From an uncultured bacterium (GTDB lineage Bacteria > Cyanobacteriota > Vampirovibrionia > Gastranaerophilales > Gastranaerophilaceae): a stretch of 64,000 nucleotides of DNA. The stretch covers positions 1-64,000 of the forward strand of contig CACYVN010000002.1 in NCBI GenBank assembly GCA_902777855.1. The letters run 5' to 3'. The translations under genes and the position numbers were made by a program. The first letter of the stretch is position 1. Each line of letters begins with the position of its first letter. The notes below the pieces were generated by a model. It did no database searches, was not told the origin of the DNA, and saw only the letters and a program-made list of their open reading frames with translations. This document shows positions 39,544 through 42,466 of this stretch, in pieces.

Positions 39544-39999
39544 TTAGTCGTTTGCACTTGTTAAGAAATTAACAAGTCCCTGCAAACCGAGTTTATAGCT
39601 GTCGATTTTAAACCCACAGATTTGTCCGACACAAACATCAGCAAACATTGATTCATGTCTGAATTCTTCACGTCTGTAAATGTTTGAAATATGAATTTCA
39701 ACGGTCGGAATTTTCACTGCCAAAAGCGCATCACGTATAGCTACGCTTGTATGAGTGTATGCACCGGCATTAATGACAATTCCGTCAAAGTTGCCCAGAG
39801 CATACTGGATTTTATCAACAATTTCACCTTCACAGTTGCTTTGGAAGATTTCAATATTAATTCCCAGTTCAAAGGAATATTCGTGAAGCTCCATCTCAAT
39901 ATCTTTGTAAGACTTTGAGCCGTACTGTTCGGGTTCTCTCACTCCCAACATATTGATGTTCGGACCATTAATGATGAGTATGTTTAAATCTTTCTCCAT
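39544..39999 (-). CDS. aroQ: 3-dehydroquinate dehydratase, type II
   Basis: A 151-aa dodecameric shikimate-pathway enzyme converting 3-dehydroquinate to 3-dehydroshikimate. LIINGPNINMLGVREPEQYG carries the active-site Asn, Arg and Tyr; SNCEGEIVDKI, INAGAYTHTSVAIRDAL and EIHISNIYRREEFRH with the catalytic His are present. First gene of an aroQ-lemA-DUF2207 run. The ATG is 7 nt after TGcTATAAT and has no SD. Confidence 0.96.
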   Translation of the reverse strand: MEKDLNILIINGPNINMLGVREPEQYGSKSYKDIEMELHEYSFELGINIEIFQSNCEGEIVDKIQYALGNFDGIVINAGAYTHTSVAIRDALLAVKIPTVEIHISNIYRREEFRHESMFADVCVGQICGFKIDSYKLGLQGLVNFLTSAND

Positions 40000-40006
40000 G
40001 CCCGAA

Positions 40007-40015
40007 ATTATAGCA
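40007..40015 (-). promoter_or_regulatory. Extended -10 promoter of aroQ (leaderless)
   Basis: TGcTATAAT on the minus strand, then TTCGGGC (7 nt) and ATG. It lies about 30 bp from the -10 of a divergent small-RNA candidate. Confidence 0.65.
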
Positions 40016-40039
40016 TAAAAAATAAAAAATGTAAATTTT

Positions 40040-40048
40040 TGTTACAAT
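40040..40048 (+). promoter_or_regulatory. Extended -10 promoter of small-RNA candidate
   Basis: TGtTACAAT (-10 at 40043-40048). Same box form as the era promoter. Predicted start near 40055. Confidence 0.5.
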
Positions 40049-40054
40049 ATAGAT

Positions 40055-40164
40055 TTAGAAATGTTACAAACTTGACATGTTATTATATCATGCATGTACA
40101 AACTATCCCAAAATCTCCTCCCAAGATTATTGTTCAAGTCGCAAAAAGTTGTGACTTTTTTTTT
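40055..40164 (+). ncRNA. Candidate ~110-nt small RNA with C-rich loop
   Basis: There is a promoter box, no credible coding frame, and a strong intrinsic terminator with a tetraloop and seven T. Inside, AATCT (40112-40116) and AGATT (40124-40128) form a short hairpin that displays CCTCCCA in its loop. This is complementary to SD sequences such as GGGAGG, as in C-rich regulatory RNAs of other bacteria (for example cyanobacterial Yfr1, Staphylococcus RsaE-like RNAs). A second stem ACATG / CATGT lies upstream (40075-40097). No family match is claimed. Confidence 0.5.
40136..40164 (+). terminator. Intrinsic terminator of small-RNA candidate
   Basis: AAGTCGCAA / TTGTGACTT, 9-bp stem with one G-T pair, loop AAAG, then seven T. 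Confidence 0.85.
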
Positions 40165-40649
40165 GTATGCGTGAGCCGATGTGGAGTGCCGGTGTCGGCT
40201 TGCCGACGGGCAAGACGAGCAGGGCACGGAACATAATACCACCGCCGTTGTGAATGTAGCGTTAGCGAAATGAACGAAGCAATCTTTGATTGCACAGGCG
40301 GAATTTAGCCCGAGCAGAGGAATGAGCGAAGCGAATGGTTCCGTTGACAAAGGGAACCAAAATTTTCAAGATTCCGCATCAAGTGCGGAATGACGAAAAT
40401 TTTGTGTGACTCTGTCTGCTGTGCATATTGCGAGGGCGTAGCGGATTTTGCCGATGTGTAATGCCGGTGGCAGTTTAATGCAAAATCCAAGACGCAAGAT
40501 AAATCCCAGCAAAAAGTAGGTAAGGCATTTGCCAGACTCAATAAATTGGTGCGAAACATCGCACCCTACTTCTTTTCTTGATGCGAAACATCACACCTTA
40601 CGGCTTCCTAATTGTATATTTGTATGGTGCAATTTTTTGCACCATTAAA
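40165..40649. repeat. Gene-free mosaic of dispersed repeats
   Basis: Visibly richer in G and C than the rest. It contains AAAATTTTC...GAAAATTTT arms around TTCCGCA / TGCGGAA (40352-40401), then GTAGG-TAAGGCATTTGCC, GGTGCG-AAACAT-CGCACC-CTAC and GATGCGAAACATCACACC-TTAC (40516-40602). Motifs such as GCGAAATGAACGAAGC and GAGCGAAGCGAATGG recur. Short frames across it encode repeat-type peptides (HLMRNL) and are not taken as genes. Confidence 0.65.
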
Positions 40650-41441
40650 TTAATATTTTTTTATCCCGTAATTTTTTTGGAGTTTACGCAGAGTACCGTT
40701 GTGTGCGGCTTCGTTTATGACATCATTAACCACTCTGACCAAATCTTCAGATTCTTCGCCTTTTCTGAATGCAACAGCATATGGCTCTCTTGAATAGCGT
40801 TTGGGAAGCATTACAAGACTGCCGTCTTTTAAAGATAAACCGATTAAAATCGTATCATCTGAAACTATAGCATCTGCTTTGCCCTGCTTTAAACCTTTAA
40901 CTGCTTCGCTATATGTTTTGTAGCCGATAATACTTACATTTGGCACTGCCGCACGCAGACTCCCTTCACTGGAAGTTCCAAAAACAATAATAGCTTTCTT
41001 ACCGTTTAAGTCACGAATACCTTTAATTTTGCTCCCTCGTTTTACCAAAACAGCCTGACCTGCTATGTAATAAGGATCTGAAAAATCCAAAATCTGAAGC
41101 CTTGCAGGTGTGACAGACATTGTTGCAACTACCATATCAACATCTTCGCTAAAAAGTTTCATCATTCTGTCTGATGCAGTAACGGGAACAAACTTGACTT
41201 TACCTTTTTTACCAAAAATTTGTTCGCCTATCATGTTAGCCAAATCGACGTCATAACCTGCATATTTCCCGTTCTTGTCTTTAAACCCGAACGGATAAGT
41301 ATCAGTTTTTACTCCAATAATAACACTTCCCCGTTTTGTTATATCGTCTAAAGTGCTTGGTACAGGTTCTTTTTGTGGTTTTACACAACCGCAAAAAACA
41401 AACATTACAAGTATCAGTAATAAAGCTATCTTTTTGTACAT
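40650..41441 (-). CDS. Amino-acid ABC transporter substrate-binding lipoprotein (family 3)
   Basis: A 263-aa periplasmic-type binding protein. Lipobox in LVMFVFCGC, then the family-3 pattern: VIIGVKTDTYPFGF, GYDVDLANMIGEQ (carboxylate-side contacts), ATMSVTPARLQILDFSDPY (signature with binding Arg), VFGTSSEGSL and AIVSDDTIL. AAAGGG SD. No permease or ATPase adjacent, so an orphan binding protein; the ligand is a polar or charged amino acid by family. Confidence 0.9.
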   Translation of the reverse strand: MYKKIALLLILVMFVFCGCVKPQKEPVPSTLDDITKRGSVIIGVKTDTYPFGFKDKNGKYAGYDVDLANMIGEQIFGKKGKVKFVPVTASDRMMKLFSEDVDMVVATMSVTPARLQILDFSDPYYIAGQAVLVKRGSKIKGIRDLNGKKAIIVFGTSSEGSLRAAVPNVSIIGYKTYSEAVKGLKQGKADAIVSDDTILIGLSLKDGSLVMLPKRYSREPYAVAFRKGEESEDLVRVVNDVINEAAHNGTLRKLQKNYGIKKY

Positions 41442-41596: not shown

Positions 41597-42466
41597 ATGA
41601 GGAAGATTTTAATATTTTTTGGAATTTTATTAATCAATATTATTATTGCAAATCCGTGCCATGCAATAAAAATCGGGCTACTGACAAATGTTGACAGAGC
41701 AGGAGTAGGAACAGATGTTGCGGGCAGAATGATTAGCACCCACACAAACAGGACAGTAGCAACAACGGTTGCAATGAAAGGTTATATACTTGTTCCTTAT
41801 AAAGGACAAATAGCTGTTGAAGCAAAAGGAGAGATTACACCTCTTAATACGGATGCATTGGTATTAAGACCTGATACCAGCGGGTTTGTAAGTACGAAAG
41901 GCAAATGGTACAGGGGTAAATTGTTAGTAAAGAATATTAATGGAAGTCTTACGGTTATAAATGATATTTCTGTTGAAGAATATATAAGAGGAGTTGTTCC
42001 GTCAGAAATGTCTCCTTCATGGGAATATGAGGCACTAAAAGCACAAGCAATTGCCGCAAGAAGTTTTGCACTCGCAAATTTGGGTAAACAAGCAAAACTC
42101 GGGTTTGACCTTAAAGACAATACCGAGGATCAGGCCTATGGCGGAGCATCAAGTGAAACCGATAAAACAAACCGTGCCGTAAACGAAACAGAAGGTCTTG
42201 TTTTGACTTATGATATGAAAATTATTTCTGCATATTATTCTGCATCTGCAGGCGGTTATACAAATACGAATGCATGGGGCGGTGTAAATTTGCCGTATCT
42301 TCACTCTGTTTTTTCATTTGACGATAATGTCGCAAAAAACGGGCATGGTGTCGGTATGAGTCAGCATGGTGCAAATAATCTTGCCAAACAAGGTTATAAC
42401 GCATATCAGATTTTACAATATTTTTACCAGAATGTTAAATTCGCTAAATTAAACAGTGAAGTTTAA
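41597..42466 (+). CDS. SpoIID/LytB-domain protein, compact form
   Basis: A 289-aa secreted protein with signal peptide (cut near NPCHA). SpoIID proteins are lytic transglycosylases acting on denuded peptidoglycan. The catalytic Glu is in VVPSEMSPSW (E137), with LKAQAIAARSFAL, SAGGYTNTNAWGG and the C-terminal NGHGVGMSQHGA. Between PYLHSV and GHGVGMSQ there are only about 12 residues, whereas usual members have roughly 100, so a whole subdomain is missing although the frame is intact. Predicted leaderless. No sporulation genes are near; a cell-wall role is likely. Confidence 0.87.
   Translation: MRKILIFFGILLINIIIANPCHAIKIGLLTNVDRAGVGTDVAGRMISTHTNRTVATTVAMKGYILVPYKGQIAVEAKGEITPLNTDALVLRPDTSGFVSTKGKWYRGKLLVKNINGSLTVINDISVEEYIRGVVPSEMSPSWEYEALKAQAIAARSFALANLGKQAKLGFDLKDNTEDQAYGGASSETDKTNRAVNETEGLVLTYDMKIISAYYSASAGGYTNTNAWGGVNLPYLHSVFSFDDNVAKNGHGVGMSQHGANNLAKQGYNAYQILQYFYQNVKFAKLNSEV

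What the first reader, a model, noticed from the sequence alone, without database searches (positions are those of the whole stretch)
40040..40164. Candidate small RNA exposing a CCUCCC loop, divergent from aroQ
An extended -10 (TGtTACAAT), no coding frame, an excellent terminator with 7 T, and a hairpin AATCT-CCTCCCA-AGATT in between. The loop is complementary to GGAGG-type SD sites. C-rich loops of this kind in other bacteria base-pair with SD regions. In a genome with a leaderless class, such an RNA would affect only SD-bearing genes.
Basis: partly seen in the sequence, partly recalled or inferred. Interest (0 to 1): 0.7.

Follow-up and report, generated by a model that had tools for sequence, protein, structure and literature searches.

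The report
Conserved anti-Shine-Dalgarno small RNA
A gut-bacterial lineage related to cyanobacteria carries a tiny, extremely conserved RNA gene whose C-rich core matches ribosome-binding sites, so it probably switches off protein production from selected messages.

Summary
Window 40098-40164 (+) is a roughly 67-nt small RNA gene. It is conserved across the order Gastranaerophilales (non-photosynthetic relatives of cyanobacteria): 236 of 382 genomes of the class match, usually one copy each. The 5' half (CCCMAAAUCUCCUCCCAARAU) is almost invariant, while the terminator stem changes sequence and keeps pairing. It matches no Rfam family.

Three details change. (1) The named promoter (TACAAT) is not conserved. 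The likely -10 is TATCAT (40086-40091), placing the start at 40098. (2) The AATCT/AGATT hairpin is not conserved: its only C-G pair is lost in 8 of 29 representatives, with no covariation, so conservation lies in the sequence. (3) aroQ is the neighbour in only about half of loci.

Best explanation: a trans-acting RNA that pairs with GGGAGGAG-type Shine-Dalgarno sites and blocks translation. Transcription and targets are inferred. A leaderless gene class is real (120 genes with TATAAT-N6-start). I also found a second RNA ("B") sharing the ACCCCAAnCUCCUCCC core and having the 5'-hairpin/open-motif/terminator layout of cyanobacterial Yfr1. This is a new family of a known kind.

The parts
40098..40164 (+). 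Small RNA gene, about 67 nt (5' ACAAACUAUCCC... to the end of the U tract)
   Evidence: Boundary of conservation; covariance model hit 40098-40164, E 4.7e-15; start lies 7 nt after the -10, the spacing calibrated by the genome's leaderless genes
40107..40127 (+). Near-invariant core CCCAAAATCTCCTCCCAAGAT, containing the anti-SD-like CTCCTCCC (40115-40122)
   Evidence: 21 invariant columns in 29 representatives, mostly in this block; core present in 46 of 48 fetched model hits
40112..40128 (+). Weak hairpin AATCT/AGATT that leaves CCTCCCA in the loop; species-specific, not a conserved pairing
   Evidence: C-G pair lost in 8 of 29, no covariation; unpaired in L038 and largely open in L052
40136..40164 (+). 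Intrinsic terminator (stem 40136-40157, T tract to 40164)
   Evidence: four of six counted stem pairs show changes on both sides across genera
40086..40091 (+). Likely -10 box TATCAT (start 7 nt downstream at 40098)
   Evidence: Conserved in the genus (TATCATGCATG, one TAACAT); TATNAT or TTAAAT-like box at the same place in other families
40063..40068 (+). -35-like GTTACA, 17-nt spacer to TATCAT
   Evidence: only partly conserved
40072..40099 (+). TTGACATG...ATATCATGCATGTAC, repeated CATG half-sites overlapping the -10: possible operator, unidentified
   Evidence: Conserved in the genus and in sister genera as GGCATGCTTG..TATCATGCATG
39544..39999 (-). aroQ (type II 3-dehydroquinase), divergent neighbour, apparently leaderless (TATAAT ends 7 nt before ATG); not part of the RNA gene
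   Evidence: Pfam PF01220 E 4e-60; promoter at 40035-40007

Best explanation
The locus encodes a trans-acting small regulatory RNA of about 67 nt, transcribed from 40098 and ended by an intrinsic terminator at 40164. Its conserved, mostly unpaired core (CCCMAAAUCUCCUCCCAARAU) pairs with Shine-Dalgarno regions rich in GGGAGG or GGAGGAGA and blocks 30S binding, lowering translation of a subset of SD-bearing mRNAs. Leaderless and weak-SD genes would escape. The RNA gene, its boundaries and its conservation are shown computationally. Transcription, pairing with targets and repression are inferred.
For: Conservation: 48/60 relatives, 236/382 class genomes and 223/319 good ones, also in families f2, f3, f4, f6, f7 of the order. 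The core is near-invariant while flanks, neighbours and terminator sequence diverge. The terminator stem covaries. The transcript folds better than all 200 shuffles in six of eight representatives and better than all but 3 in the other two. The gene neighbours vary (aroQ, RelA/SpoT-like protein, peptidylprolyl-isomerase-like protein, others), which argues for action in trans. A GGGAGGAG leader pairs with the core at -19.0 kcal/mol against -12.5 for the 16S tail, whereas AAGGAGGU favours 16S. Genus relatives keep the canonical 16S end GGCTGGATCACCTCC. The same motif works this way in NfeR1 (PMC10746234) and, in related forms, NmsRA/B (PMC5362039) and Yfr1 (PMC6974561).
Against: No expression data. 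Start regions in this genome are not enriched for pairing with the real core over cores with shuffled flanks. The best extended match, 11 nt at the SD of an anaerobic ribonucleotide-reductase-like gene, is not conserved in relatives. Only one leader with a conserved GGGAGG was found, and RNA B pairs with it at least as well as this RNA does. In this genus the ends of CUCCUCCC sit in a weak hairpin. About 30% of good genomes of the class have no clear hit, partly because other orders lack it.
Confidence: 0.72

Rival explanations
1. A protein-sequestering RNA: the invariant core is a binding site for an RNA-binding protein, like a CsrB- or 6S-type decoy, and pairing with mRNAs is secondary.
For: The core is longer (about 21 nt) and more invariant than an SD seed alone needs. 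No target enrichment was found.
Against: One core per RNA, unlike multi-site decoys. The same core recurs in a second RNA (B) in a different structural frame, which suits a seed. CUCCUCCC is exactly complementary to SD-type sequence.
Confidence: 0.12
2. A 5' leader or riboswitch-like attenuator of a neighbouring gene, ending at the terminator.
For: It ends in a strong intrinsic terminator and lies close to other genes.
Against: In the window the next + strand gene starts at 41597 and the intervening gene is on the opposite strand. The downstream gene and its strand vary between loci. There is no conserved alternative fold. Rfam has no match.
Confidence: 0.04
3. A broad global brake: the RNA mimics the 16S tail and lowers SD-led initiation as a whole relative to leaderless initiation, rather than acting on a set of targets.
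For: A large leaderless class exists; the core resembles the 16S tail (AUCUCCUCCC against AUCACCUCC); no special target set stood out.
Against: Pairing with the common AGGAG or AAGGAGGU sites is weaker than or about equal to that of 16S. Stoichiometry against all mRNAs is demanding. The core extends well beyond the SD match.
Confidence: 0.1
4. Two-RNA regulation: the RNA mainly pairs with another RNA (a sponge partner), as Yfr1 and Yfr2 do.
For: Yfr1 and Yfr2 of cyanobacteria have complementary motifs (PMC6778093).
Against: No site complementary to the extended core exists in the 98% of the genome read, apart from the gene itself.
Confidence: 0.04

Closest known systems
Yfr1 and Yfr10 of cyanobacteria
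   Same: Short terminator-ended RNA (Yfr1 54-69 nt) with an ultraconserved C-rich motif containing CUCCUC that pairs with ribosome-binding regions; nearly universal in the sister class (PMC2190773, PMC6974561, PMC6778093).
   Different: Motif is UCUCCUCCCAA, not ACUCCUCACAC; no 5' hairpin; no guaB/trxA neighbourhood. Model R1 finds nothing in the cyanobacteria sampled. RNA B, found here, is closer to Yfr1 in layout.
NfeR1 (alpha-r14, 'cuckoo' RNAs; SmelA075/SmelA099 of Rhizobiales)
   Same: Ultraconserved CCUCCUCCC anti-SD motif; represses translation by pairing at the initiation region (PMC10746234, PMC3927594).
   Different: Those have three or four hairpins each carrying the motif, with variable stems; here there is one motif, largely open, and a long invariant flank. 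No sequence homology seen; weak sub-threshold suhB/mmgR hit only.
Sibling anti-SD RNAs NmsRA/NmsRB of Neisseria
   Same: UC-rich anti-SD stretches, sibling RNAs in one genome, SD blockade (PMC5362039).
   Different: Two anti-SD regions per RNA and three stem-loops; unrelated sequence.

Membership tests
Yfr1 | Unpaired ultraconserved ACUCCUCACAC | tested here: not met
   Core is TCTCCTCCCAA in all members read; ACTCCTCACAC absent from G000, while nearly all the typical cyanobacterial genomes sampled have it
Yfr1 | Two stem-loops flanking the motif (5' hairpin and terminator) | tested here: not met
   Terminator present; the predicted start lies about 9-10 nt before the core, leaving no room for a 5' hairpin. 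RNA B does have it
Yfr1 | guaB / trxA neighbourhood | tested here: not met
   aroQ in about half of loci, others variable
Cuckoo / alpha-r14 (NfeR1) | Several hairpins each with CCUCCUCCC in the loop | tested here: not met
   One motif, CUCCUCCC; hairpin not conserved
Any Rfam 15 family | Covariance-model score above the gathering cut-off | tested here: not met
   No match in the window at gathering threshold; at the locus only sub-threshold matches, e.g. suhB 13.9 bits against 41
Anti-SD trans-acting sRNA (functional kind) | Stand-alone terminator-ended RNA with conserved SD-complementary core | tested here: met
Anti-SD trans-acting sRNA (functional kind) | Transcribed, and represses SD-bearing mRNAs by base pairing | not testable with these tools
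   Needs RNA-seq and reporter tests

The most novel reading that the evidence does not exclude
Gastranaerophilales run a two-RNA anti-SD system (this RNA plus the Yfr1-like RNA B) descended from the same ancestral RNA as cyanobacterial Yfr1/Yfr10. That would make Yfr1-type control older than the split between photosynthetic and non-photosynthetic lineages. In this lineage, with a large leaderless gene class, it would shift translation between SD-led and leaderless mRNAs.
Probability: 0.15. Interest if true: 0.82.

Novelty: new member of a known kind. Interest (0 to 1): 0.58.

Why it matters
Searches of the held library found no paper describing a small RNA in this uncultured gut lineage. A family this conserved is a ready entry for Rfam and for metatranscriptome checks. 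Because it sits in the sister group of cyanobacteria beside a Yfr1-like RNA, it makes the age and origin of Yfr1-type regulation testable. The coexistence of a strong anti-SD RNA with a large leaderless gene class makes class-selective translational control testable.

Tried and rejected
Conserved hairpin: rejected. Known Rfam family: none. Homologue in cyanobacteria or other classes: none found by R1. The single cyanobacterial hit of model R2 is a chance terminator match. Genome-wide target screen with duplex energies: no enrichment over flank-shuffled cores. Ribonucleotide-reductase-like gene as target: 11-nt match not conserved. Weak R1 hits in genera g33, g34, g38, g40, g42: where read, terminators or RNA B, not this RNA.

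Full report
The locus. Between aroQ (39544-39999, minus strand; Pfam DHquinase_II) and a solute-binding-protein gene (40650-41441, minus strand) lies a stretch with a strong plus-strand terminator at 40136-40164. No Rfam family matches.

Conservation. A BLASTN search with 40000-40175 found the element in 48 of 60 relatives. A pattern scan of species genomes returned at least 115 contigs; nearly every record title naming a group was Gastranaerophilales, Melainabacteria or 'Cyanobacteria bacterium'. Records titled Fusobacterium and Brachyspira are, in my reading, mislabelled members of this order. A covariance model built from 29 diverse members hit 236 of 382 genomes of the class, 223 of 319 good ones, with E 4.7e-15 for the window's copy and mostly one copy per genome. 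With a laxer search, most of the sampled genomes from other families of the order also gave strong hits, while several genera of f1 and one of f7 did not. No genome outside the order matched in the class or phylum samples. The phylum sample does contain many typical cyanobacteria, shown by their Yfr1 motif.

What is conserved. The 5' half is near-invariant: ATCCC(C)AAATCTCCTCCCAA(G/A)AT. The terminator keeps pairing while its letters change: four of six counted pairs have changes on both sides, and the structure as a whole has 25 such cells against 11.8 in shuffles. The AATCT/AGATT hairpin shows no covariation and loses its only C-G pair in 8 of 29 representatives. In those clades the core is predicted to be open (L038) or largely open (L052). 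The hairpin is therefore a local feature, not the reason for conservation.

Promoter and 5' end. In this genome 120 of 589 SD-less genes have a TATAAT-like box exactly 6 nt before the start codon, against about 12 at other distances and 0 of 722 among SD genes. This confirms a leaderless class and calibrates the distance from -10 to transcript start (7 nt). Applied here, TATCAT at 40086-40091 gives a start at 40098, where family-wide conservation begins. The gene calls behind these counts come from a simple home-made caller and are approximate.

Genomic context. aroQ is upstream in about 82 of 170 loci. Other clades have a RelA/SpoT-like gene, a peptidylprolyl-isomerase-like gene and others, on either strand (names from sequence inspection, not database search). 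The RNA is independent of its neighbours, as expected for a trans-acting RNA.

Mechanism. CUCCUCCC can pair with GGGAGGAG. Against an optimal SD (AAGGAGGU) the 16S tail wins (-17.3 against -11.4 kcal/mol); against GGGAGGAG the RNA wins (-19.0 against -12.5). GGGAGG occurs upstream of only 9 of 1770 starts, so a selective effect is plausible. A screen of all start regions found no excess over cores with shuffled flanks. One candidate target stands out: an exported protein of unknown family (G000 C3:12558-13202, no Pfam match). Its leader keeps GGGAGG in 26 of 27 genus homologues although most of the proteins are only about 50-75% identical to it. GATTAGGGAGG followed by a start-like TGA within 2-9 nt occurs in 28 of 32 genomes of the genus sampled and in 18 of 350 others (not every hit was checked to be this gene). 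RNA B pairs with this leader at least as well as the present RNA, so it cannot be assigned to one of them.

A second RNA. The search for GGGAGGAG revealed, read on the other strand, a second conserved RNA (B): G000 C7:228890-228975, minus. It has a 5' hairpin, an open ACCUCCUCCCCAAGUCUGGUAGCC stretch and a terminator. It is found in 130 of 292 genomes of the phylum sample, including genera that lack the present RNA; every convincing hit is in the order of the window. In several families its core reads close to ACCCCAAnCUCCUCCCC, resembling the present RNA. Its layout is that of Yfr1 (PMC2190773). Several copies are preceded by TAAAG..GCCGATA, resembling a sigma-28 promoter; this was not tested further.

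Placement. By function the RNA would be an anti-SD sRNA like NfeR1 (PMC10746234), NmsRA/B (PMC5362039) and Yfr1 (PMC6974561). By membership it fails the defining features of Yfr1 (motif, 5' hairpin, neighbourhood) and of the cuckoo family (several motif-bearing hairpins). It is a new family. Homology with Yfr1 is possible but not shown.

Shown: gene boundaries by conservation, terminator covariation, invariant core, distribution, leaderless class. Inferred: transcription, SD blockade, selectivity, any origin shared with Yfr1.

Noticed in passing
G000 C7:228890-228975 minus (L283:8891-8975; L400): Second conserved small RNA 'B' with a Yfr1-like layout (5' hairpin, open CCUCCUCCCC, terminator), in 130 of 292 genomes of the phylum sample and also in genera lacking the window's RNA; no Rfam match above cut-off.
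   Followed up: partly
L244, L247, L378, L381, L393, L399, L419, L421: Upstream of RNA B several genomes carry TAAAG(TTT)..GCCGATA, like a sigma-28 flagellar promoter; a flgB-like gene of G042/G047 has an SD reading GGGAGGAGGU (L388, L395), a 10-nt match to RNA B. Suggests a flagellar link.
   Followed up: no
G000, genome-wide; aroQ start at 39999 in the window: Large leaderless class: 120 starts without SD have TATAAT exactly 6 nt upstream, with an extended TG -10.
   Followed up: partly
G000 C3:12535-12558 (L466): Leader AGATTAGGGAGG is nearly invariant across the genus upstream of a fast-evolving exported protein of unknown family: candidate target of anti-SD RNAs.
   Followed up: partly
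40072-40099: Conserved CATG repeats (TTGACATG...TATCATGCATGTAC) overlapping the RNA's -10, a possible operator of an unknown regulator.
   Followed up: no
40170-40620: Intergenic stretch that looks richer in G+C than its surroundings, with repeat-like phrases (e.g. GATTCCGCATCAAGTGCGGAATGAC) that occur only once in the part of this genome read; possibly acquired.
   Followed up: partly
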